Assembly: GCF_902498825.1 (NCBI RefSeq)
Contig: NZ_LR701450.1
Location: forward strand, 1 to 12,756
Origin: Rhizobium sp. EC-SD404
GTDB lineage: Bacteria; Pseudomonadota; Alphaproteobacteria; Rhizobiales; Rhizobiaceae
Direction of reading: 5' to 3'
DNA length: 12,756 nucleotides
Shown here: one piece after another, positions 422-12,756 of the stretch
How positions within the stretch are numbered: the stretch's first letter is position 1
Layout: each line of letters opens with the position of its first letter
Program-made: the position numbers and the translations under genes
The notes under the pieces: generated by a model
The model's database searches: none
The model's input: only the letters and a program-made list of their open reading frames with translations
Told to the model about the DNA's origin: nothing

Positions 422-3400
422 TCACCCCCTTGCGTACCGCGACAGGAGCTCCTCGGTTGGGGCGACTCCGAGCAATCCCTCCAGCTGCTCCGCGCTCGGT
501 TTCTCCCGATCAAAATGCATGGATCGAACAAAGCCTTCGGTTTCCAGCGTGTAGACGCCTGTGTGCAAGACCCGACCGCCGAATCCACGGTGGGCGTCTT
601 TGCCGCCGAAAACGCCTTTCTCACCCGCAACGACCCAGATGGCAGCCAACCCTTCTCGGTCAAGCATCTCGAGAAAAGCGCCACGGTCGACCAGCGCTGC
701 TTGGTATCCTGGCTCGATTACTGAAGGATCGAAAAAGCGAACTTCACCATCCGTATCCACGAAGGTTGGCTTTTGGCCATCCTGCAACCGCAACCCCATC
801 GCCTTGGCGAGCCAGGGCGCAGGCAACTCGATCCGGACCGTCTCATCAACCGAATAGTCGTAACCGCCCCGCTCGGAAAGGTAATGTGAGGTGGTCGGGC
901 GAAGCGATACAGACAAGCTGTTCCATCCATCACCCTCTACCCAGTCATCCTGATCTTGCAGCGTCGGATGCCACGGATATTCGCCGAGAAAGTAGGAGCC
1001 ATCGAGATGGAATTCGGGCAGGGCGTGCGGATCAACGAGGATCTGGCTGCTAAGGTCCTCTTTGGCTTTGGCCGCATCCCCTTTGACGAGGACAATGCAG
1101 GTGACGCGATACCAAGTCTCGCGCTGCATGGATTTGTTATCGCCGTCGAGGCCAGATTGTCGCCAAGACGCAAAGCTATGCAAAGGCAACCAACGGCGTT
1201 TGGTTTTCGGGTCGATCAGATCGATAAGCGAAGCATCGTTAAGGATGTCACTGTCACTATCCAGCCAGGCTAGGCGCTCTAGCGGCTCAACCTGTCGCAG
1301 CCGGGGCTGGACCGGAACCCACCAGGTCCGGTCCCATTGCTTCCAACCGTCATAATGCGTTTTCGTGACCAACAGCGACGGGTCCATATCTCGCAGCCCC
1401 ACATCGCGCGCTCCTTCATAGGGACGGTGTTCGTCACCATAGCCCTGACCCATGAATAGCAGATTGTCCGCCATTCGCGCGACCAGCTCGCGAAGCGCCA
1501 GCCATTGGTATTTTTTCCCGATCCGCTCCACGCGATGATCGTGACGATCGCCACTGTAACCGCGTTCCAGCTTCGAGAACCGCTCCTGAGTCCAGCCGAG
1601 TTCATGCGCGCGCATGCAAATCCAGCGCCGACCCCAGCCTCGATTGAAGCGGGCTGAATAGTCGTGCGGCTGTTCCGAAGACAGGGAATGCCGAACGAAC
1701 GTTTGCGCCTTTACCCGGTATTCTTCCCATTCCTGGGGCGCTAACGTCGCTTGAAACGCCTTCTCGGCCGCTTTAAGCGCGGCGCGTTCAGGCGTTTCCT
1801 TAAAGCGAAGATCGCCGCCGCAAGCTTTAGCGGCCTCCGCTACGGCTTCAAACGCCGTAAGCTGCTCGGCACTGGCCTGCAAAATAAACCGGCCGAGCCA
1901 GTCGCGAGCCAGGCTGTGGGCGCTTGGGCAATTCTCTGCATCGATCGATACCGGCGCCCATTTGTCGATCGTATGGTCAATCACATAGCGCGCGAAATCG
2001 CCGTCATTGACCGCCGAACTGACGATGGCGTCGCCATGGTAAGCTCCGTTGTAGTTCTGCTTGTAACTCTCGATTTTGGCTTTCGACACGTATTCGATCG
2101 GCCATGGGCTCTTATATGGTGGGTGCACCTTCGCCAGATCGATGCTGGGCGGCAGTTGCTCGCGGAACTCGGCATAGGCGATGATGCCGCGCGCATGGTC
2201 TCGAAGTAGCTCGTTGAGAGGTGGGTCGTCGGCCGCAAATATAAGCGCATAGGTCGTGGCCGCCAGTTCGGACAGGCCATCGGCGGTCTTGCCCTGCAAT
2301 GCCGCACCATAGGCGGCGGCAAATAGCCGCTCCCTGAGATAGAGGTCATTCGCCTCCGCGAAAAGGCGAAGCGTGGATGCGGCAAGGGTCAGACGCGTGG
2401 CAAGGAGCGATGCCAGCGCTTTGGTTGCCTTATCGCGAACGGCGCGGTGCGAAGTGGTCAGGAACCAGGAGAGGGTGATCGCGGCTAGCTGGGCACGATC
2501 ATCGTCAATTGTGCCCATACCATTCTGCATGGCCCAGCTGATCACGACCTCAACCGGATCATCCTCGCTGCCGCGATCATTCAGAAACACCGACCAGTTG
2601 GCGTCCCGCTCGGGCATGGAACGCGCGGAGAGGCGTTCATGCATGTAGAGCGCGTTGAATTTGTTGTCGGGCTCGGTGGCGACCGAGATGAGTAGGTCGC
2701 GAATGCCATTGTCATTTTCGAAATGCCGGAGGCACTCAAAAGTTCGATCAGTAAAAAACCGCTGTTCGCGCCACAGCAAGCTGTCGAGAAATGCCTGCCG
2801 TATCGCCCAATTAATTTCCGGCCTGAGATCCACGATCTCCACGCCGCAGCGTTCAGGCAACTGGATTGCAATCGCTTCGATTATGCCGGCGACGCGGTAA
2901 TATTCTTCGCCGAAAACCAATCCTGCCAGCACGGTGCCGTCAGCAAACGAGGCCTTTACGTCTTCGGTATTCAAATACTCCCCTAGCAGGCGCGCCGCGA
3001 TGGCATGATCGCTGTACCGCTCAAAGGTGAAGCGGACCATCGGCACGATCTTGTCGTCGTCCTCCCGGATGAGTTCGATGGCCAGCACCCCCTCGCTCTC
3101 AAATTGAGAGAGCAGGCTCTTTTCAAGAGAGCCGCCGGAAGGAAGAACAGCCTCGAATGCGGCAATCACATCCGTTTTAGGAGCATATCCTTCGCCGCGA
3201 TTGACCAGGATATTAGTGAAACGCGCCAGCGCGGTCGAAACAAGAGCGAGATGAGGATCCAGCTTCATGCGCCGGGTGACAGAGCGGATAACGGCTTCGT
3301 TGTAGAAGCCAAAAATGGCGCTTACCCCGCGCAGGCCGCGCGGAAGCTCATTCCGGCCCTCCTTCTGAAGGAAGTCGCAGCAGGTTTTGAGGAAAAGCGG

Positions 3401-4990
3401 ATTCTGAAACTCTGGCACTAGATTGGGCGCGCCGGGGCGGACGATGCCCCGCTTGGCCAGATAAACGTTGGCGGCTTCACCGCCGCGCCCGGCGAAACCC
3501 TGATGAGTCACCCGCGCCAGGCGGTCGTCATCAAAGGAATCCGGCACGACGTGCTGCACATAGGTCGATCGGCAGGACAGCACGATGCCCACATGCAGGA
3601 AAGGCTCGGCCATCTTGAGAAACGTGGCTAATCGGTCCGGCCAAATGTCCGTGCCATGACGTTCGTTGATCGCATCAATGCAAATGATAGCGCGCACGCC
3701 CGCCGCTTGTCCTGCAGCGTCCAAACTTCCGAGGAAATGCTTGCCTTGCAAATCCGGCGCCATATCCAACTGCGCCATAATCTGCTTCCAGGGTTCACCT
3801 TCAACCAGCACGCTACCCAGCACTAGCAATGCCGGCCGATTGGCGTGGATCTGATGTTCCACAACGTCCGCGAGTAGATGCGATTTCCCCGTTCCTGCCT
3901 TACCCTGCAGCAATACGGCATGGGTATTTGCTAACCGCCAATCGTCGGATTCTAACTCCGCCTCAATGTTCCGGACGACATCTATTAGACGGTAAAGTTG
4001 TTCTCGCGCCCAATCTTCTCTGGTGACGCCATGCTCCGCTCGGCTGACGGGCAGGGTAAAGACCCAGTTTAGCGCATCATAGCAGGCTGAGGAGCATGCC
4101 TGCGCCGCCGCCTGCCAAGCAGCTAGCGGGAACTGGCTTTCGGGACCGATAGGCTCGATATCTAATGCTTGGCTGAATGACGATAGCGCCTCGCCCAGCT
4201 CGGTTACCTCTTTCGGCTCGTCATTCTCACCAACGGCGTGTGCGATGGCCTTGAGCGCACCACCGCCTCGGTCGCCTAAGCCCAGCGACCATTCCAGCAC
4301 CGTTCCATTAAGAGACGGGTCACGGGCAAATGCCAGGAAAGTCTGACGGATCGGCAATTCGACGTTGGTGTCGGGCGTATAGCGAGAGCCCAAGGCTTCG
4401 CGCGCCTTTCCAAATTGCTCTGCGAACCACTCCGAGGTGAGCGCGGTAGCCCCAAACCAATAAAGCAAGCGACCGCTATACGCGGGACTGTCGATGATAA
4501 GACGACCGCTTAGTGCGCCGCTGTCCCAGAGGGAAATCGTCAACGCTCGCTGTTGGTCCGCCGCTTTTTGCTCCCAGCCGGCTTTCCACGCCTCCCATTT
4601 CTGACGCGCGCTCTTTTTCTGGGTTCGGCTTTTTCCCTGATTTGGCCGCCCATCCGGGAGGTCAAATGGAACGCAGACAGTCAGCTCCGTCAATCGAGGA
4701 TGCTTCGCAAGCGCTGCTTCCATCGATTTATCGAGCTGGGCTTCGAGACTGGTATCCCAGTCGAATACATATTTGGCCTGCCATCCGCGCTCGTCGCCGT
4801 TGCTCAGCCTGACGAAACACTCAATTCCACCGTCACCGCCACGCCCTTTTCGCACAAAGGCAGAGCCCGCTGGCCGCTCTTCGAGAGACGCCAGTTGCGT
4901 GATCAGTTCCTCAAATCCGGTATGGCGACTACCATCGTGAGGGCGGATTTGGGAGAAATTGATATCGGGGAGGGCCACGGCAGGGATCAT
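422..4990 (-). CDS. Avs-like (AVAST) STAND NTPase with N-terminal PD-(D/E)xK nuclease
   Basis: Likely a cytoplasmic anti-phage sensor. In characterised Avs proteins a phage protein (terminase or portal) is recognised by the C-terminal region, the NTPase oligomerises, and the N-terminal nuclease degrades DNA. The product is 1522 residues. A nuclease-like N-terminus (about residues 20-190) carries FEELITQL (26-33), GGDGGIE (D53, E57) and WQAK (Q71, K73), the PD-(D/E)xK pattern of Mrr/Cap4 domains. The P-loop GKAGTGKS is at 363-370, Walker B IICIDAINE at about 435-443, and a sensor-like SCRS at about 472-475. The long remainder is probably alpha-helical repeats, ending with a conserved-looking WVVAGEKGVFGG segment near 1452. 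The ATG at 4990 is preferred because family-like sequence (INFSQIRPHDGSR) starts just after it. The upstream in-frame ATG at 5065 would place the start inside the inverted repeats of the divergent promoter. No clear Shine-Dalgarno sequence precedes 4990. The reading frame is intact. The exact Avs type is unassigned; types 2-4 carry comparable nucleases. Confidence 0.82.
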   Translation of the reverse strand: MIPAVALPDINFSQIRPHDGSRHTGFEELITQLASLEERPAGSAFVRKGRGGDGGIECFVRLSNGDERGWQAKYVFDWDTSLEAQLDKSMEAALAKHPRLTELTVCVPFDLPDGRPNQGKSRTQKKSARQKWEAWKAGWEQKAADQQRALTISLWDSGALSGRLIIDSPAYSGRLLYWFGATALTSEWFAEQFGKAREALGSRYTPDTNVELPIRQTFLAFARDPSLNGTVLEWSLGLGDRGGGALKAIAHAVGENDEPKEVTELGEALSSFSQALDIEPIGPESQFPLAAWQAAAQACSSACYDALNWVFTLPVSRAEHGVTREDWAREQLYRLIDVVRNIEAELESDDWRLANTHAVLLQGKAGTGKSHLLADVVEHQIHANRPALLVLGSVLVEGEPWKQIMAQLDMAPDLQGKHFLGSLDAAGQAAGVRAIICIDAINERHGTDIWPDRLATFLKMAEPFLHVGIVLSCRSTYVQHVVPDSFDDDRLARVTHQGFAGRGGEAANVYLAKRGIVRPGAPNLVPEFQNPLFLKTCCDFLQKEGRNELPRGLRGVSAIFGFYNEAVIRSVTRRMKLDPHLALVSTALARFTNILVNRGEGYAPKTDVIAAFEAVLPSGGSLEKSLLSQFESEGVLAIELIREDDDKIVPMVRFTFERYSDHAIAARLLGEYLNTEDVKASFADGTVLAGLVFGEEYYRVAGIIEAIAIQLPERCGVEIVDLRPEINWAIRQAFLDSLLWREQRFFTDRTFECLRHFENDNGIRDLLISVATEPDNKFNALYMHERLSARSMPERDANWSVFLNDRGSEDDPVEVVISWAMQNGMGTIDDDRAQLAAITLSWFLTTSHRAVRDKATKALASLLATRLTLAASTLRLFAEANDLYLRERLFAAAYGAALQGKTADGLSELAATTYALIFAADDPPLNELLRDHARGIIAYAEFREQLPPSIDLAKVHPPYKSPWPIEYVSKAKIESYKQNYNGAYHGDAIVSSAVNDGDFARYVIDHTIDKWAPVSIDAENCPSAHSLARDWLGRFILQASAEQLTAFEAVAEAAKACGGDLRFKETPERAALKAAEKAFQATLAPQEWEEYRVKAQTFVRHSLSSEQPHDYSARFNRGWGRRWICMRAHELGWTQERFSKLERGYSGDRHDHRVERIGKKYQWLALRELVARMADNLLFMGQGYGDEHRPYEGARDVGLRDMDPSLLVTKTHYDGWKQWDRTWWVPVQPRLRQVEPLERLAWLDSDSDILNDASLIDLIDPKTKRRWLPLHSFASWRQSGLDGDNKSMQRETWYRVTCIVLVKGDAAKAKEDLSSQILVDPHALPEFHLDGSYFLGEYPWHPTLQDQDDWVEGDGWNSLSVSLRPTTSHYLSERGGYDYSVDETVRIELPAPWLAKAMGLRLQDGQKPTFVDTDGEVRFFDPSVIEPGYQAALVDRGAFLEMLDREGLAAIWVVAGEKGVFGGKDAHRGFGGRVLHTGVYTLETEGFVRSMHFDREKPSAEQLEGLLGVAPTEELLSRYARG

Positions 4991-5114
4991 TGTTGTCGGG
5001 AACGACGAGCTTAATCGTTTTCCGTTTGTTCTGCCAGCCCAGGCTGGATTACTGTACCATCCCATCCAGCCGTCCAGACGAGCAAATCGGAAGGATGGGA
5101 ATTGCGGGGCTCAA
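4991..5114. promoter_or_regulatory. Divergent promoter region with nested inverted repeats
   Basis: This 124-bp gap separates the divergent Avs-like gene and the 564-residue gene, so it must hold both promoters. It contains CCAGCC (5034-5039), GGCTGGAT (5042-5049) and ATCCAGCC (5064-5071). The first two form a perfect 6-bp inverted repeat with a 2-bp centre. The last two form a perfect 8-bp inverted repeat with a 14-bp centre. A weak rightward promoter, TTGTTC (5026-5031) and TACTGT (5050-5055), would overlap them, so they could be an operator. The promoter match is poor; the repeats themselves are certain. Confidence 0.45.
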
Positions 5115-6809
5115 ATGATCGATATTGCCAATCTGATGGCCGTTTCAATTCCGCCGGCAGACCCAAAGGAATGGCTGCCAAATGCCGAGGCCGGGGTCGA
5201 TTACCTTCAATCGCAGCTCCGCAATGACGAAACGATTCTCTACGCACTCTTGCAATGCACGCTGGTGCATGGGGTCTTGGCGGATCGCGCCAAAGTCACT
5301 CCGCCCGACCATGCTGACCTGCTCCATGCGATGCTCATGCCGGACTCCACTTGGTCGATCAGCCATGTATCGGGTGGCGGAGCGCCGGATCGCGTCTATC
5401 TAGCTCCTCCCCATGATCACACCGGCAGCGATGCGCTTGACGATGCCGAGAGTCTTGTCGCCCGACGCTCCTTTTCCGCGGTTGACAAAGGCAAAACCCG
5501 CACCGAGGTGAGTCAGCGGTTGGTCCATGCGCTAGGCCTCTACTGGCTGGATGAGGAAAGCGCGTTCTGCCGACTGGATGAACATGGCGATATCGAACCG
5601 GTCCTGCGCGTCATCGACGTCGAACCTTACACCGGCCAATCGTCCGAAATTCTAGTGACGATCAAGGCGCGTGACCTCGCACGCTACATGGTGGTGACCA
5701 ACACCGTGCTGGTCCAGAAATTCGACTTTACGCGCTTTATTCCGGGCTCGTTCACGATGTGGGCACAACCTGGCGAATATCGTGAGCGCGGGGCCGATCT
5801 GTTCTACAACGTGACCTCACAACCCGGCGCTAGCTACGCGAACGGAATCCTTATCAGTCGCCCCGGCCTGACCTTCGCTGATCTGGTGCGCGAGCACCGA
5901 AGGCGATGGAATGATGAGGACAAGCAATATGCCACTTTCAAGGCATATGACTGGAAGCACCAACGAATCGCAGAAATTTCCTGCGCGCCGACGGCGCTAG
6001 CCAGTTACTTCGAGCCGGAATCTCCACTGCCATTCCAGATCACACCGGCATTCTTCCGGCCGGGAGTGCTCCAGCGCTACAAGGCCGATCCCGAGAAATA
6101 TAGGCTTGAGCATCGCTCGGTCTATTCCCGCGCCGGCTGGTCCCTTAAAACCTACGACATAAATGAAGCCGGCCAAGTTCACACATACCTGCATTATCTG
6201 GGTGACCTGCCTTATCACGAGCAGCTTTATTGGCAGGCGTTCAACGAGTGGCCCAAAGCCTCGATATCTAAGCGCGCCTACCAGACGGACATTCAGGGGC
6301 AATGGACAGATATCCCGGACCCGCTGATCGAGCTGGTTGCGGAGGTACGCAAGCTTGATGAGGCGAAGCCGGAATGGTGGCAGCCCCGGGGCGAAGATCT
6401 GCGGGCAACAGCGCACTATCCGATCACGACCTCGCCAGACGAATGGGGTAACGCAATTCTGATTCTCGATCAGATGCTGGTTGAGGGCTTCGCATCCAAA
6501 GGCATCCGCGCACGCCTCGACAATCTGTCGCATCCCTACGAGAAGGAATGGGGATCGCTGAAACTTATCCAAGAACTGATGATCGCCCAAGGTTTCGCGG
6601 CATCGGACGCTACCGAAGCGATGGAGCCGCTTCGCCAGCTCCATTTCCTGCGCTCAAAGATAAAGGGACATGCGGCCGAAGCTCAGCGGCAACAGCTTAT
6701 CAAGGAAGCGCGCACCAAAAACGGGAGTCTGAAAGAGCATTTCGAGCAGCTCGCGTTTGATTGCCAAAAGGCATTTGAAAAGGCCTGCTCCAGTCTATCA
6801 CGGGCGTGA
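5115..6809 (+). CDS. Uncharacterised 564-residue protein divergent from the Avs-like gene, possible defence partner
   Basis: I cannot assign a function. The product is soluble, with no signal peptide or membrane segment. It is rich in aromatic and charged residues, for example FNEWPKASISKRAYQTD (about 376-392), GLTFADLVREHRRRWNDEDK (251-270) and HYPITTSPDEWGNAIL (434-449). The density of such motifs, and my impression of having seen similar hypothetical proteins, suggest a conserved family; that is memory, not a search. Near the C-terminus LRSKIKGHA gives R513-x5-H519 in a helical context, which fits the R-x4-6-H pattern of HEPN RNases but could be chance. The ATG at 5115 is chosen because it follows GGGG (5106-5109) by 5 nt and avoids overlap with the divergent gene. 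The upstream in-frame ATG at 4959 lies inside that gene. The shared control region suggests a functional link. The gene may instead be an independent defence or housekeeping gene of the island. Confidence 0.8.
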   Translation: MIDIANLMAVSIPPADPKEWLPNAEAGVDYLQSQLRNDETILYALLQCTLVHGVLADRAKVTPPDHADLLHAMLMPDSTWSISHVSGGGAPDRVYLAPPHDHTGSDALDDAESLVARRSFSAVDKGKTRTEVSQRLVHALGLYWLDEESAFCRLDEHGDIEPVLRVIDVEPYTGQSSEILVTIKARDLARYMVVTNTVLVQKFDFTRFIPGSFTMWAQPGEYRERGADLFYNVTSQPGASYANGILISRPGLTFADLVREHRRRWNDEDKQYATFKAYDWKHQRIAEISCAPTALASYFEPESPLPFQITPAFFRPGVLQRYKADPEKYRLEHRSVYSRAGWSLKTYDINEAGQVHTYLHYLGDLPYHEQLYWQAFNEWPKASISKRAYQTDIQGQWTDIPDPLIELVAEVRKLDEAKPEWWQPRGEDLRATAHYPITTSPDEWGNAILILDQMLVEGFASKGIRARLDNLSHPYEKEWGSLKLIQELMIAQGFAASDATEAMEPLRQLHFLRSKIKGHAAEAQRQQLIKEARTKNGSLKEHFEQLAFDCQKAFEKACSSLSRA

Positions 6810-6835: not shown

Positions 6836-6886
6836 AACTAAAGTCCGCTTGAGCAAGGAGCGGGACCGGAAGCCGACAGTCGGCCA

Positions 6887-6931
6887 ACGGCCCCGAAGGC
6901 GTATGCAGGAAATCATTTCCTAGCTTGCCCA
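6887..6931. repeat. 45-bp imperfect direct repeat, copy 1
   Basis: This copy begins with the 16-bp word ACGGCCCCGAAGGCGT and ends in AGCTTGCCCA. By eye it matches the copy at 7014-7058 at 37 of 45 positions with no gap. Most mismatches lie in the middle. Confidence 0.75.
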
Positions 6932-7013
6932 CTCCGGCGCCCCCGACTGGACCGATGTCGGATGCCGAATGTCGGCTTCCTCCGCTTCTACGCTAGAACC
7001 GGACAGACCGCTC

Positions 7014-7058
7014 ACGGCCCCGAAGGCGTCGACCGGAAAACGTTTCCCAGCTTGGCCA
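7014..7058. repeat. 45-bp imperfect direct repeat, copy 2
   Basis: This is the second copy of the repeat at 6887-6931, offset by 127 bp. The first 16 bases are identical and the end reads AGCTTGGCCA. The origin is unknown. It could be a tandem duplication that has diverged, or two remnants of a dispersed intergenic element. Confidence 0.75.
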
Positions 7059-7127
7059 CGCCAGTTGATGCCGACGGTCGGACCGGGGTGGAAACCGGTC
7101 GGTCATCTCTCAGCAAAGACCTTCAGG

Positions 7128-7175: not shown

Positions 7176-8567
7176 TCAGGCGAATAAGGCCGCCCCCATT
7201 AGCGCGCATGCAAGTAAAACCTTTATCATGCCGACCTTGAAGCCAAACACTGCGATCACTGCTGCGGCGGTGAGCGCGAGTGCCACTGGATCGAGCGTGT
7301 GGAAGACGGGCAACTCGATCTCGGTTCCAAGGCCGCGCCAGGTCGTGACCTCGCCAAAAAGGGCGTGGATGGAGAACCAGATGGCAAGGTTCATGATGAC
7401 CCCGACGACGGCGGCCGTGATCGCCGTCATCGCGCCCGTCAGGGCGACGTTTTCGCGCAGCCTCTCGATGAACGGCGCGCCCAGGAAAATCCACAGGAAG
7501 CAGGGGACGAACGTTACCCATGTGGTGAGGATCGCGCCGAAGGTCGCGGCGGCAAGCGGGTGGAGACCGGCTGCCTCGCGATAGGCTGCGAGAAATCCGA
7601 CGAATTGGACGACCATGATGAGCGGGCCGGGCGTCGTCTCGGCCATGCCGAGCCCATCCAGCATTTCTCCCGGTTCAAGCCAGCCGAAATTCTGTACGGC
7701 CTCCTGTGCCACATAGCCGAGCACGGCATAGGCGCCTCCGAAAGTAACAACCGCCATCTGGCTGAAGAAGACCGCGATCTGGCTGAAGACGTTGTCCTGG
7801 CCGAAAATAATCACGAGCGCGGCAACGGGAACCAACCACAATGCAAGCAGAACGCCCGAGATGCGTAGCGACCAGGCGAGGTTCGGACGAGCGTGCTCAG
7901 GCAGTCGGTCGCCAAGCGCCGTGTCCGCATCGGGTACCGTAGCGTTCGTGCCAGACCCATGCCCGCCGCCGAGGCGAAACCATGATGAACCAGACCGCCC
8001 ACCGACATAGCCGACAAGTCCGGCCGCAAGAATAATTACAGGGAACGGAACGCCGTAGACGAAAATCGCGACGAACGCCGCCATGGCAATGGCAACCGTC
8101 GCCGGGTTCTTCAGCACGCGCCCGCCGATGCGCAGTACGGCCTGCAGCACGACGGCAAGAACAGCCGCTTTCAGACCGAAGAACAGGCCTTCCACGACAC
8201 CGACTTCACCATAGATGACATAGACGAAGCTCAGGGCGAGGATCGACAGGAAGCCTGGGAGAATGAAAAGGACGCCCGCGACAAGGCCACCCATTGTCCG
8301 GTGAAGAAGCCAGCCGACATAGATCGCCAGTTGCTGCGCTTCGGGGCCAGGCAACAGCATGCAGTAGTTGAGCGCGTGCAGAAAGCGATGCTCGCCGATC
8401 CAGCGCTTCTCCTCGACCAGGATTCGATGCATCACGGCAATCTGCCCGGCTGGGCCGCCGAAGCTGAGGGCGGCGATCCGCGCCCAAACGCGAACCGCTT
8501 CCTTGAACGATATGTTGTGACCGGTGTTGTCGGCGGCCGCCGGATCGGTCTTGCTAATCTGATCCAT
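7176..8567 (-). CDS. chrA: ChrA, chromate transporter (two-domain CHR family)
   Basis: An inner-membrane transporter of the CHR family, which exports chromate from the cytoplasm and so confers Cr(VI) resistance. The product is 463 residues, typical of the long two-domain ChrA. The first CHR repeat includes SFGGPAGQIAVMHR (about 34-47) and LLPGPEAQQLAIYVGW (about 70-85). The second has VTFGGAYAVLGYVAQEAV (about 273-290) and AETTPGPLIMVVQFVGF (about 308-324). Both repeats are followed by several hydrophobic membrane segments, and a hydrophilic linker lies at about 190-230. The ATG at 8567 begins 1 nt after the stop of the rhodanese-ChrB gene, which indicates translational coupling. A longer open frame up to 8813 is an overlap artefact inside that upstream gene. 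The family and the conserved motifs are clear. Transport direction and substrate are taken from the family. Confidence 0.95.
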   Translation of the reverse strand: MDQISKTDPAAADNTGHNISFKEAVRVWARIAALSFGGPAGQIAVMHRILVEEKRWIGEHRFLHALNYCMLLPGPEAQQLAIYVGWLLHRTMGGLVAGVLFILPGFLSILALSFVYVIYGEVGVVEGLFFGLKAAVLAVVLQAVLRIGGRVLKNPATVAIAMAAFVAIFVYGVPFPVIILAAGLVGYVGGRSGSSWFRLGGGHGSGTNATVPDADTALGDRLPEHARPNLAWSLRISGVLLALWLVPVAALVIIFGQDNVFSQIAVFFSQMAVVTFGGAYAVLGYVAQEAVQNFGWLEPGEMLDGLGMAETTPGPLIMVVQFVGFLAAYREAAGLHPLAAATFGAILTTWVTFVPCFLWIFLGAPFIERLRENVALTGAMTAITAAVVGVIMNLAIWFSIHALFGEVTTWRGLGTEIELPVFHTLDPVALALTAAAVIAVFGFKVGMIKVLLACALMGAALFA

Positions 8568-8568
8568 G

Positions 8569-9384
8569 TCAGGCACCCGGCTTCGTGTGCGGCCAGTTGT
8601 GAGTCTCGCCGGTCGCGTCCCGGCACCAGCGATAGAAGGCGTCGTAGAGAAGCATCCCGGCATCGAGTTGTTCGAGATCGTCGGCATACATGCGCGACAG
8701 TCCAAGCGATGCCGCGAGAAGACCAGGAGCCTCCGGTGCAAGGTCCGGTCGTGCCGTATCCGCACCTCGCACGATCGCAGCAAGACGCAGGAGCGGTGCG
8801 GTCGCCAGGCCAAATTCCTGGATCATGACATCAAAGGTACAAAGGTCGCCGCGATGGCTCCAGAAGACGCTGTCGACGTCGAACGGCGCGCCGCCGAATC
8901 TTTCGGCCACCGCAGCGACTTCCGCCGGGGTGACGAACAGGATGATAGCGTCAGGATCGACGAACCGTCGGATCAACCACGGACACGCGATCCGGTCGAT
9001 CTTCGGGCGTGCCCGGGTTACCCAAACGGTTCGGCCGTCGACGTTAGGCTTCTCGCTCTTTTCCGTCGGCACAAGCGGATGGCGTGCGTCGCGCCATGCC
9101 TCGAAACCGCCTTCGAGAATTTCGGCGGCAGTACCGTGCGCGCGCAGGAATGCCGCGACACCTTCGCTCAGTTTGTGGCCCTGTTGGCAGTATACGATGG
9201 CAGGGGCACGGACCGATCCGATCCAGTCAGCAAGGCGATCCGCATTCCGGCGTCGCGCTGAGGGAATCAGTCTCGGATCGGACTGGAAATCCGCATCGTT
9301 GCGAACGTCGATCAGCGTCGGGCATTTCGGCGTACCGATGAGCCGTGCCAGTTTTTCAGGAGAAATGGTGGTCGTCGAAGACAT
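8569..9384 (-). CDS. chrB: Rhodanese-ChrB domain fusion, chromate resistance protein
   Basis: Probably a cytoplasmic accessory protein of chromate resistance, coupled to chrA. The product is 271 residues. Residues about 8-105 form a rhodanese domain with LIDVRND (24-30) and the active-site loop YCQQGHK, catalytic candidate C66. Residues about 118-257 match the ChrB C-terminal domain: VTRARPKIDRIACPWLIRRF, HRGDLCTFDVMIQEFGL, IVRGADT, and a YDAFYRWCR end. The usual ChrB N-terminal domain is absent and replaced by the rhodanese. The chromate-responsive regulator role described for classical ChrB therefore cannot be assumed. A sulfur-transfer or redox role is an inference. The ATG at 9384 is chosen because GGGAGGG lies 6 nt upstream on the minus strand. 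The in-frame extension to 9483 lacks family sequence. It is separated from the upstream nickel exporter gene by 109 bp. Confidence 0.9.
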   Translation of the reverse strand: MSSTTTISPEKLARLIGTPKCPTLIDVRNDADFQSDPRLIPSARRRNADRLADWIGSVRAPAIVYCQQGHKLSEGVAAFLRAHGTAAEILEGGFEAWRDARHPLVPTEKSEKPNVDGRTVWVTRARPKIDRIACPWLIRRFVDPDAIILFVTPAEVAAVAERFGGAPFDVDSVFWSHRGDLCTFDVMIQEFGLATAPLLRLAAIVRGADTARPDLAPEAPGLLAASLGLSRMYADDLEQLDAGMLLYDAFYRWCRDATGETHNWPHTKPGA

Positions 9385-9390
9385 GATGCG

Positions 9391-9397
9391 CCCTCCC
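9391..9397 (-). promoter_or_regulatory. Ribosome binding site of the rhodanese-ChrB gene
   Basis: The minus strand reads GGGAGGG, 6 nt before the ATG at 9384. This is the clearest Shine-Dalgarno sequence in the right block and decides the start against the longer open frame. Confidence 0.7.
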
Positions 9398-9438
9398 GTT
9401 TCAGGGTTTATGGACGCGATTCTTGGGCTGACGCCTCG

Positions 9439-9459
9439 TGGGGAGACCGCATGTCCCCA
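9439..9459. promoter_or_regulatory. Inverted repeat in the nickel exporter-chrB gap
   Basis: TGGGGA (9439-9444) and TCCCCA (9454-9459) form a perfect inverted repeat with a 9-bp centre. Two flanking bases extend it with one mismatch. It lies in the only sizeable gap of the five-gene minus-strand run, about 55 nt upstream of the ChrB start. It could be an operator for a separate chr promoter or a 3' hairpin of the nickel genes. No T-run follows it on the minus strand. Confidence 0.35.
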
Positions 9460-9493
9460 TGGCTCAATTCCATTCCCTCTCACGAACCGATTG

Positions 9494-10222
9494 TCAAGAC
9501 ACCGCGACTGTCCGGAACGCGATCAGCACCAGTATCAGACCGGCCAGTCCTTCGATCACCCGGCTCACCCGGTTAAGCAGCAAGGGATGTGACGCGATCA
9601 AGGCCGCAAGCGCCTGACGGAAGAAGACGGTGGCAAGCGCGACAGTCGAAAGCGTCGTTGCGACGCCAAGCATCATCATGGCCGCGAAGGCCAGCCCAGC
9701 CTCGGTGACGCCGCGCTGCATCGAAAAGATCATGACGAACAGCGTGAGCGGACACGGGATCAGCCCGGCGACGATGCCGACCAGCAAGCCTTTGTTGTCA
9801 CCATCACAGTGCCGGTGCCCACATATCGCGCGCCACAGCATCCATAGTCCGATGAGGCCCAGGAGACTGCGGCTGATATTTTCCATGGCGGGTGCGCGAC
9901 CGACGCTGCCGAGTGCGATGGAAATGAGCGGCAGCGAGAACAGCGCGATGATCACAGCCATCAGGACATGGGTGAACGACAAGGTCAGCGAAACCGCCAG
10001 ACCGCGTGCGACAGAGATCGTCGATCCGGCGAGATAGGTCGCCAGAACCGTCTTGCTGTGCCCCGGCGTCATCGCATGGACGGCGCCGAAGACGATCGCC
10101 ATCGGCAGAAACGTCGCCAGGTCCAGCCATCCGCCGCCGGAAGCGAATGCCCGGATCGTGTCGGCAAAGGTCAGATAGATGTCCCGCTGGACGTCGATCA
10201 GGCTCTGGACGAGGAACGGCAT
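9494..10222 (-). CDS. NicO/RcnA-family nickel/cobalt exporter
   Basis: An inner-membrane protein that probably exports Ni(II) and/or Co(II). The product is 242 residues, slightly shorter than E. coli RcnA. The signature HAMTPGHSKTVLATYLAGS (49-67) contains H49 and H55. A second conserved segment, GLIPCPLTLFVM (153-164), follows a short cytosolic-type loop GHRHCDGD (135-142), which replaces the longer His-rich loop of RcnA. About six hydrophobic segments are visible. A possible ribosome binding site GGAAAG lies about 8 nt upstream of the ATG at 10222. It lies 38 nt after the MFS gene and is most like the NicO-type member of ncr nickel-resistance operons. Substrate preference cannot be told from sequence. 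Confidence 0.88.
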   Translation of the reverse strand: MPFLVQSLIDVQRDIYLTFADTIRAFASGGGWLDLATFLPMAIVFGAVHAMTPGHSKTVLATYLAGSTISVARGLAVSLTLSFTHVLMAVIIALFSLPLISIALGSVGRAPAMENISRSLLGLIGLWMLWRAICGHRHCDGDNKGLLVGIVAGLIPCPLTLFVMIFSMQRGVTEAGLAFAAMMMLGVATTLSTVALATVFFRQALAALIASHPLLLNRVSRVIEGLAGLILVLIAFRTVAVS

Positions 10223-10260
10223 GCTTTACGCTTTCCGATGCGGGCCGGATTGGCGCTCCT

Positions 10261-11583
10261 TCAAGGGCGCGCTTGTGGCCACGCATCGTGAAGATCGTCG
10301 ATCACGAAGGCATGGGCGTGGCGTCGGTTGCCGGCATGCCCTCCTTGCGTCCAGTGCGGATGACTAGCCGGCAGGTTCGCATGGTCGTGTTCGACGATTT
10401 CAGGGTCGCCGGCAGGCCAAAGCATGGCCGAACAGGTTACGCCCGCGACTGCGATTGTCGCCAAGATCGTGGCCGTGGCTGGCAGTCCAAGGCTGGCGCC
10501 GGCCCATCCGGCAAGCGGATAGGTGATGAGCCAGCACGCATGGGACAGGGCGAATTGCGCGGCGAACAAGGCCGGACGATCTTCCGGATGGGACGAGCGC
10601 CTGAGCAGGCGGCCGGAAGGCGTCAGCGCGAGCGAAAAGCCAATGCCCATAAAGCCCCAAACCAGAAGCAGAAGGCCGTAAGAGTGGATGAACGCGGCGG
10701 CTCCTGTGGCGATCGTGATCACCGAGGCACCTGCAAGCATCACTGGACGATCGGCGAGACTGTCGAGCAGCCGGGGCAGCAACAACGCGACCGCCATGGA
10801 TCCGCCGCCAAACGCTGCGAGCGCGCCCGCCGTCTCGCTCTGCCCAAGCCCGAAGATCGCCTGGACGTAGACGACGGTGTTGACGATGACGAATGCGCTG
10901 CCGCCGGCAACGGCCATGTTGATGGCCAGCAATCCGCGCAGGCGGGGAGTGGCGAGATAGATGCGGATGCCGCGCGTGGTGCGATCGTAGATGCCGCGAG
11001 GTTTGCTCGGCTTCGGGCTCGGAAGAAGGACCGTCAGCACGAGGGCTGCGGATGCAAGAAAGCCAACGACCGTGCCGGCAAAGAGATTGTGGAAGCTGAT
11101 AATTGTGAGAAGAGCGGCGGCAATCATGGGGCTGACGAGACTTTCCAGATCATAGGCCAGCCTTGAGAGGGAAAGCGCTCGCGTATAATCCTTCTCGTCC
11201 GGCAGCACGTCTGGAATGGTCGCCTGAAACGTCGGCGTGAATGCAGCAGACGCCGACTGAAGCGCGAAGATCAGCACATAGACCTGCCAGACTTCCGAAA
11301 CGAAGGGCAGCAGTAAGGCGACTGCCGCCCGGACGAGATCGAGCGCGACCAGGGTTGTCCGGCGGGGCAACCGCTCGGCAAAGGCAGCAGCGATCGGCGC
11401 GACGCCGACATAGGCCACCATCTTGATGGCAAGCGCGGTCCCAAGCACGGCGCCCGCGTTATCGCCGGCCAGATCGAAGGCAAGCAGGCCGAGCCCCACT
11501 GTCGCAAGCCCGGTGCCGAGCAACGCAAGGATTTGGGCCAGAAAGAGATGCCGATAGGTGCGGTTCTTGAGAACGGCAATCAT
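10261..11583 (-). CDS. NreB-like MFS metal exporter with histidine-rich C-terminus
   Basis: A major facilitator superfamily inner-membrane exporter, probably for nickel. The product is 440 residues with about 12 hydrophobic segments. The N-terminus NRTYRHLFLAQILALLGTGLATV and the loop after the second segment (FAERLPRRTTLVALDLVRA) are typical MFS. The last about 50 residues (389-440) leave the membrane and carry eight histidines (near 399, 401, 408, 410, 416, 422, 424 and 432), including EHDH, SHPH and RRHAHAFVID. This is the hallmark of NreB/NcrA-type nickel-resistance proteins, where the tail is thought to bind the metal. The gene starts 12 nt after the CsoR-like gene and 38 nt before the NicO-family gene, consistent with one transcript. 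The start at 11583 is supported by alignment of the N-terminus with the first membrane helix. Confidence 0.88.
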   Translation of the reverse strand: MIAVLKNRTYRHLFLAQILALLGTGLATVGLGLLAFDLAGDNAGAVLGTALAIKMVAYVGVAPIAAAFAERLPRRTTLVALDLVRAAVALLLPFVSEVWQVYVLIFALQSASAAFTPTFQATIPDVLPDEKDYTRALSLSRLAYDLESLVSPMIAAALLTIISFHNLFAGTVVGFLASAALVLTVLLPSPKPSKPRGIYDRTTRGIRIYLATPRLRGLLAINMAVAGGSAFVIVNTVVYVQAIFGLGQSETAGALAAFGGGSMAVALLLPRLLDSLADRPVMLAGASVITIATGAAAFIHSYGLLLLVWGFMGIGFSLALTPSGRLLRRSSHPEDRPALFAAQFALSHACWLITYPLAGWAGASLGLPATATILATIAVAGVTCSAMLWPAGDPEIVEHDHANLPASHPHWTQGGHAGNRRHAHAFVIDDLHDAWPQARP

Positions 11584-11595
11584 GAGGAAGCGCCT

Positions 11596-11874
11596 TCAGA
11601 GATATTTTGCCAGTGCCTTGAGGTCGTCGACGAACTGGCGGTCCGGACCTGCCTCGCGGTCGCTCGGCGTTCCCAGGCAATGATCGAGATGATCGTGAAT
11701 GAGGGTCCGCTTGGCCTGCTGAACGGCCTTCTCCACGGCGTGCATCTGCTGCGCGATGTCGAGGCACGGACGCTCCGCCTCGATCATCGCAATGATGCTC
11801 TTGAGATGTCCTTCAGCGCGCTTGAGGCGCTTGACGATGTCGGGGTGAGAGGCATGAAGGTCGGCATGAGTCAT
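11596..11874 (-). CDS. CsoR/RcnR-family metal-sensing repressor
   Basis: A small all-alpha cytoplasmic repressor (DUF156 family) that binds G/C-tract operators and releases DNA on metal binding. The product is 92 residues, normal for the family. The core reads HPDIVKRLKRAEGHLKSI (10-27), then C37, then the second helix HDHLDHCL with H60, H62, H65 and C66. The spacing C37-H62-C66 reproduces the C-x24-H-x3-C ligand positions of CsoR. The N-terminal histidines H3, H7 and H10 add the extra ligand type used by nickel and cobalt sensors such as RcnR and InrS. Given the nickel-type neighbours downstream, I infer Ni(II)/Co(II) rather than Cu(I) sensing. No Shine-Dalgarno sequence precedes the ATG, and the apparent -10 box ends 6 nt before it, so the mRNA may be leaderless. 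Confidence 0.9.
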   Translation of the reverse strand: MTHADLHASHPDIVKRLKRAEGHLKSIIAMIEAERPCLDIAQQMHAVEKAVQQAKRTLIHDHLDHCLGTPSDREAGPDRQFVDDLKALAKYL

Positions 11875-12413: not shown

Positions 12414-12756
12414 ATGACACGACCACCTTCTCGGGGTGTCGGTCGAACGCTTCCGGCGTTCGCTCCCCACCTCACGACCGGGCTCATCGCGCTCGGCTTG
12501 ATGCTCGCCTGCGCGTCCTCGGCGCTGGCCCACGCGGTCACCGCCGGCGATCAAGGCTACATCCAGGAAATCAGCGGGGTGAATCTCATTCCGTTTATCT
12601 ATCTGGGGGCCAAGCACATGGTCACCGGCTACGACCACATCCTGTTCCTGCTCGGCGTGATCTTCTTCCTTTACCGGATGCAGCACATCGCCATTTACGT
12701 GACGCTGTTTGCCATCGGTCATTCGACGACCATGCTTCTCGGCGTCTACTTCAACA
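12414..12756 (+). CDS. hupE: HupE/UreJ-family membrane protein, truncated by the window end
   Basis: The first 114 codons of a nickel/cobalt permease-type protein; the rest lies beyond 12756. A signal peptide ends at ASSALA, so the mature chain would begin at H40 (HAVTAGD), as in many HupE proteins. The family motif HMVTGYDHILFLLGV (68-82) carries H68, D74 and H75. HSTTMLLGV (103-111) follows in the next membrane segment. HupE proteins are described as Ni(II)/Co(II) uptake permeases, which would be opposite in direction to the exporters across the divergent promoter. Direction here is not shown by sequence. The ATG at 12414 has no strong ribosome binding site. The other nearby ATG at 12398 is out of frame. 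The gene probably forms an operon with the His-rich protein. Confidence 0.85.
   Translation, partial: MTRPPSRGVGRTLPAFAPHLTTGLIALGLMLACASSALAHAVTAGDQGYIQEISGVNLIPFIYLGAKHMVTGYDHILFLLGVIFFLYRMQHIAIYVTLFAIGHSTTMLLGVYFN

What the first reader, a model, noticed from the sequence alone, without database searches (positions are those of the whole stretch)
422..6809. Avs-like nuclease-NTPase diverging from an uncharacterised conserved-looking protein: candidate two-gene defence module
The minus-strand protein has the nuclease, STAND NTPase and long C-terminal layout of Avs anti-phage sensors. The divergent 564-residue protein matches no family I know, and the two share one 124-bp control region. A repeated association would point to an accessory factor of Avs-type immunity or to a new defence gene neighbouring it.
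Basis: partly seen in the sequence, partly recalled or inferred. Interest (0 to 1): 0.72.

Follow-up and report, generated by a model that had tools for sequence, protein, structure and literature searches.

The report
Avs2 beside a HEPN-like defence protein
A known type of bacterial antiviral sensor (Avs2) sits next to an undescribed protein that looks like a stand-alone phage alarm, with a domain shaped like the end of another antiviral sensor (Avs3) joined to a probable RNA-cutting (HEPN) domain; the two genes are neighbours here but were rarely found together elsewhere.

Summary
Both genes are real. The minus-strand gene is an ordinary Avs2: full-length PADLOC match, 1822 bits. The divergent 564-aa protein matches no PADLOC, Pfam, NCBIfam or PHROG family, yet has at least 1019 relatives.

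A fixed two-gene module is not supported: an Avs2 was found in 1 of 80 genome loci, plus one MAG with consecutive locus tags. Best reading: an independent single-protein HEPN-type defence family whose putative sensor has the Avs3 end-domain fold without the STAND ATPase. Function is untested.

The parts
422..4990 (-). avs2 gene (1522 aa from the likely start; the ORF is open to 5065, 1547 aa)
   Evidence: PADLOC Avs2 PDLC02164, 1822.5 bits over residues 33-1527; PDB 9o4e Avs2, E 1.2e-150; start placed by P0123
4991..5114 (.). 124-bp divergent intergenic region; no promoter-like site found in it by the sigma-70 scan
5115..6809 (+). gene of the 564-aa protein P0002 (undescribed family)
   Evidence: no hit in PADLOC, Pfam, NCBIfam, PHROGs
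5115..5900 (+). residues 1-262: domain with the fold of the C-terminal end of Avs3 (8dgc 1837-2077); putative sensor
5901..6314 (+). residues 263-400: most conserved part of the family (mean 71% consensus against 53-54% for the two ends), fold not identified
   Evidence: not searched as a separate model
6315..6806 (+). residues 401-564: helical domain resembling HEPN toxins; putative RNase effector
6651..6671 (+). R513-x5-H519, R-x4-6-H motif
   Evidence: invariant in 78 of 78 rows and in 197 of 198 rows, the other one gapped there

Best explanation
Two independent anti-phage genes lie side by side. The minus-strand gene is Avs2, a STAND sensor-nuclease. The 564-aa protein is a single-protein abortive-infection factor. 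Its N-terminal domain has the fold of the C-terminal end of Avs3 and probably binds a phage protein, possibly part of the packaging machinery. Binding would release or assemble a C-terminal HEPN ribonuclease (catalytic R513 and H519), which cuts RNA and stops growth of the infected cell. Shown by calculation: the Avs3-end fold, the invariant R/H pair, the defence-rich neighbourhoods and the patchy spread. Inferred: RNase activity, phage-protein sensing, the identity of the trigger, abortive infection.
Confidence: 0.6

Rival explanations
1. The pair is a functional two-gene module: the HEPN-like protein is an accessory or back-up effector of Avs2, expressed from the shared divergent region.
For: Adjacent and divergent in the window. 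Consecutive locus tags in an Allosphingosinicella MAG, with 69% identity for the 564-aa protein and 70% over the end of Avs2. A divergent Avs2 lies 1.4 kb downstream of a 35%-identical relative in L045. A 1758-aa protein with a sub-threshold nSTAND match lies 1.4 kb away in L026.
Against: An Avs2 was found in 1 of 80 genome loci; 36 of the 80 hold about 10 kb on both sides, and PADLOC was run singly on chosen large neighbours only. Only the own genome is in both 394-genome lists. The closest Avs2 relatives (P0123, P0125) and other close family members (P0005, P0006, P0018) share no contig length across the two hit lists (best 120 of each, compared by eye). In L045 two other genes lie between.
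Confidence: 0.12
2. The 564-aa protein is a HEPN toxin or RNase whose N-terminal domain is a regulator (ligand-binding or self-inhibiting) and not a phage-protein sensor; the Avs3 fold match reflects a common protein-binding or scaffold domain.
For: A shared fold shows no function; no sequence similarity to Avs3 was detected. A HEPN defence protein proposed to be switched by a ligand is known, DS-11 with CBS and HEPN domains (PMC13092281, passages read).
Against: The single clear match is to an immune receptor solved with its phage trigger. In 42 of 72 loci with neighbours on both sides, no co-directional ORF lies within 60 bp on either side, which fits a one-gene system.
Confidence: 0.22
3. 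The C-terminal domain is a helical bundle of another kind, and the invariant Arg/His pair serves structure or binding.
Against: The four best C-terminal matches are HEPN toxin entries, and the pair keeps the R-x4-6-H spacing range in 197 of 197 rows with letters.
Confidence: 0.15

Closest known systems
Avs2 (AVAST type 2)
   Same: The minus-strand protein is a full-length member.
   Different: Slightly below NCBI's own Avs2 name cut-off (937.9 against 1000 bits); the adjacent 564-aa gene is not part of any Avs2 description I know (recalled).
Avs3, C-terminal end domain (PDB 8dgc)
   Same: Fold of residues 1-262 of the 564-aa protein.
   Different: No STAND ATPase match and no P-loop in the 564-aa protein; domain at the N-terminus; no sequence similarity detected.
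Tha-1/Tha-2 (Staphylococcus prophages)
   Different: 301 aa, with an N-terminal part that could not be modelled there; no Avs3-like domain in the passages read; its sequence was not compared here.
ApeA (HEPN defence protein)
   Same: Similar general layout, unknown N-domain plus C-terminal HEPN (recalled).
   Different: No ApeA family among the Pfam matches of 40 members at E<=0.1; no PADLOC match at all for the protein.
HepT of the HEPN-MNT toxin-antitoxin system
   Same: Closest solved structures to residues 417-564.
   Different: HepT is a small separate toxin with a nucleotidyltransferase antitoxin (recalled); profile comparison gave nothing.

Membership tests
Avs2 | Full-length match to Avs2 profiles | tested here: met
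   PADLOC PDLC02164 1822.5 bits, profile 2-1503 of 1504; NCBIfam NF041813 937.9 bits over 3-1314 of 1317, below its cut-off of 1000
Avs2 | Senses phage terminase large subunit (recalled) | not testable with these tools
   none
Avs/STAND (for the 564-aa protein) | STAND NTPase domain | tested here: not met
   No Pfam or PADLOC match; no [AG]-x4-GK-[ST] in the sequence
Avs3 end-domain fold (for residues 1-262) | Fold of 8dgc 1837-2077 | tested here: met
Avs3 end-domain fold (for residues 1-262) | Sequence-profile similarity to Avs3 | tested here: inconclusive
   None found; the same kind of test also failed between Avs2 and Avs3 ends, so it may have little power
HEPN superfamily (for residues 401-564) | R-x4-6-H catalytic motif, invariant | tested here: met
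   78 of 78 rows; 197 of 198 rows, the other one gapped
HEPN superfamily (for residues 401-564) | HEPN helical fold | tested here: inconclusive
HEPN superfamily (for residues 401-564) | Profile similarity to a HEPN family | tested here: inconclusive
   No Pfam HEPN hit; hhalign score to 120 HepT proteins 11.6 against 10.5 for the reversed control
HEPN superfamily (for residues 401-564) | Ribonuclease activity | not testable with these tools
   none
ApeA | ApeA-type Pfam domains (names recalled) | tested here: not met
   Absent from the 7 families matched by 40 members at E<=0.1
Tha | Sequence relatedness to Tha-1/Tha-2 | not tested
   Tha sequences were not fetched

The most novel reading that the evidence does not exclude
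The 564-aa family is a STAND-free immune receptor: the end domain of an Avs-type pattern-recognition receptor joined directly to a HEPN ribonuclease, so that the Avs3 end-domain fold is a mobile module used both with and without the ATPase switch, in many bacterial phyla (and in one Woesearchaeota bin, whose 3.1-kb contig groups with Brocadia and may be mis-binned).
Probability: 0.4. Interest if true: 0.75.

Novelty: new variant of a known kind. Interest (0 to 1): 0.56.

Why it matters
If right, about a thousand related proteins (none of the 120 listed has a Pfam domain) become a testable class of phage sensors with a predicted effector (RNA cleavage at R513/H519) and a predicted sensing fold shared with Avs3. 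It would show that an Avs end domain is an exchangeable part and that a STAND ATPase is not needed to couple such a fold to a toxic nuclease. It would also give an annotation for proteins now called hypothetical.

Tried and rejected
Shared domain with the neighbouring Avs2: by eye the N-domain resembles the end of Avs2, but hhalign of the family against the Avs2 end and of its three parts against ten blocks of Avs2 gave nothing above background; left as unproven. Avs2 was not among the chains listed for the N-domain model; that is not evidence against a shared fold. The option -nocons given to hhalign was ignored by the program (warning).

N-domain profile against PDB sequences: five weak matches (E 0.38 to 1) to arenavirus glycoprotein pieces, taken as chance; 8dgc not found. 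Against two Avs3a ends hhalign gave 14 columns at probability 1.2%.

Viral origin: no match in phage records; best viral structure E 7e-3 with probability 0.11.

Conserved operon partner: none general. Small subgroups share a neighbour: a 777-816-aa protein in L016, L019, L022, L080 (SEC-C motif shown for L016 and L019), and a 266-aa gene overlapping the family gene's end in L064, L070, L071.

The genome-contig search with the single protein found nothing; the alignment search found 100 loci, of which 80 were kept. Own genome, 100 relatives and the family sample gave 1, 1 and 2 genomes with a match, the own genome counted each time. Nine paper searches listed nothing that describes this family as far as titles and abstracts show; passages were read in PMC11087260, PMC13092281, PMC12931631, PMC10884400, PMC10286901 and PMC13236601; the original Avs structure paper is not held.

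Full report
What is there. The window is the whole of contig C9 (12,756 bases) of an 18-contig genome. The minus-strand ORF at 422-5065 is Avs2: PADLOC gives 1822.5 bits over nearly the whole model, and the solved Avs2 9o4e matches at E 1.2e-150. NCBI's Avs2 model scores 937.9 bits, just under its naming cut-off of 1000. This half is a new member of a known system.

The 564-aa protein. It lies at 5115-6809 and has no match in PADLOC, Pfam, NCBIfam or PHROGs. It has at least 1019 homologues in the large protein set. An alignment search of genome contigs found 100 loci, of which 80 were kept; record titles name Pseudomonadota, Chloroflexota, Planctomycetota, Acidobacteriota, Nitrospirota, Cyanobacteriota and others, and one Woesearchaeota bin, whose short contig groups with Brocadia on the tree. 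A quick tree needs 24 changes of phylum label where the least is 13; shuffled labels need 27.5 on average and none of 200 shuffles was as low, so phyla are partly clustered and partly mixed, which is no proof of transfer. The family is in 7 of 398 sampled genomes of the phylum (own genome included, two of the seven only by weak partial matches) and in 2 of 394 of the family. This is consistent with a mobile gene.

Neighbourhood. For loci L002-L084 I took called ORFs of at least 100 aa within two called genes of the family gene: 239 proteins (simple longest-ORF caller). They match 323 (120 proteins) and 234 (119 proteins) PADLOC models at E<=1e-5; the 25 shown for each set include Gabija, type I and IIG restriction, Old, HEC-01 and AbiLi. 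The control was 130 of 182 genes from 19 random 11-kb stretches in four genomes with a family match, two of them weak (one of 20 stretches dropped as overlapping); it matches 6 models. These are model counts, inflated by redundant models, not gene counts, and the control genomes are few. Scanned singly, 4 of 10 chosen neighbours had a hit at 1e-5, and 4 of 6 chosen large neighbours at 1e-3, one of them weak; two of the chosen neighbours are housekeeping enzymes by Pfam (L007 glutamate dehydrogenase, L017 DNA polymerase III alpha). On a Pseudomonas aeruginosa plasmid the homologue lies beside a SAVED / nucleotidyltransferase / ThiF / Mov34 cluster, a CBASS layout (recognised from memory).

Is the pair a module? 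A P0001 search of the 84 loci held at that point found only the own locus and a weak hit in L045. There a divergent Avs2 (327.8 bits) lies 1.4 kb downstream on the same strand, with radical-SAM and DUF6375 genes between. L026 has a 1758-aa protein 1.4 kb away with a sub-threshold nSTAND match and a weak Avs4 hit (17.3 bits). Of the 80 genome loci 36 hold about 10 kb on both sides, so absence is partly untested. In the protein lists one pair, P0010 and P0127, shares contig length 114067 and consecutive tags VMG08_17235 and VMG08_17240 (the best 120 of each, compared by eye); its orientation was not seen. In the 394-genome samples of the family, family members and Avs2-like matches occur in 2 and 5 genomes, and only the window's genome is in both. 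Adjacency thus recurs rarely, as one would expect of genes that gather in defence islands. A partnership limited to the nearest relatives is not excluded.

Mechanism. Most likely the N-domain recognises a phage protein and switches a HEPN RNase, as in Tha, where a 301-aa HEPN protein is set off by minor tail proteins and cuts RNA without specificity (PMC11087260, passages). The Avs3 fold makes a packaging protein a reasonable first guess, but whether that part of Avs3 is what touches terminase is not something I checked. The middle region, the most conserved part, may transmit the signal; this is a guess.

Novelty. Nine paper searches in the open library listed no description of such a protein. 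Many subscription papers are missing, and DefensePredictor (PMC13092281, passages) reports four validated systems with HEPN domains whose sequences I could not compare. I rate it a new variant of a known kind.

Noticed in passing
window 7176-9483 (-): Chromate resistance genes: chromate transporter and a rhodanese/ChrB_C protein.
   Followed up: no
window 9382-9463 (-): chrB-a RNA, a cis-regulatory Rfam family, 78.8 bits, at the upstream end of the ChrB-type ORF.
   Followed up: no
window 9494-11874 (-) and 12414-12755 (+): NicO-type metal transporter, MFS transporter, metal-sensitive repressor, and a HupE/UreJ gene cut by the contig end.
   Followed up: no
window 6869-6935 and 6996-7062: Two 67-nt direct repeats, 78% alike, between the 564-aa gene and the chromate transporter; function unknown, no Rfam match.
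   Followed up: partly
L045:7389-10998: Two minus-strand ORFs (417 and 787 aa) that look like a McrBC pair beyond the divergent Avs2 (by eye).
   Followed up: no
L016:2147-4597, L019:11823-14156, L022:874-3213, L080:11829-14162: A 777-816-aa protein lies directly beside the family gene in four loci; a C-terminal SEC-C motif was shown for L016 and L019.
   Followed up: partly
L064:11656-12456, L070:11686-12486, L071:2699-3499: A 266-aa gene without a significant Pfam match (one of the three scanned) overlaps the end of the family gene by a few bases in three loci.
   Followed up: no
L063:12257-12580: A HepT/DUF86 (PF01934) protein lies about 0.6 kb downstream of a family member in Candidatus Brocadia.
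   Followed up: partly
L026:459-5735 (-): 1758-aa protein with a Walker A motif, a sub-threshold nSTAND match and a weak Avs4 match, 1.4 kb from a family member; possibly an unlisted Avs-like receptor.
   Followed up: partly
L080 / L088 / L091: In a Comamonas genome the family gene is split over two reading frames.
   Followed up: no
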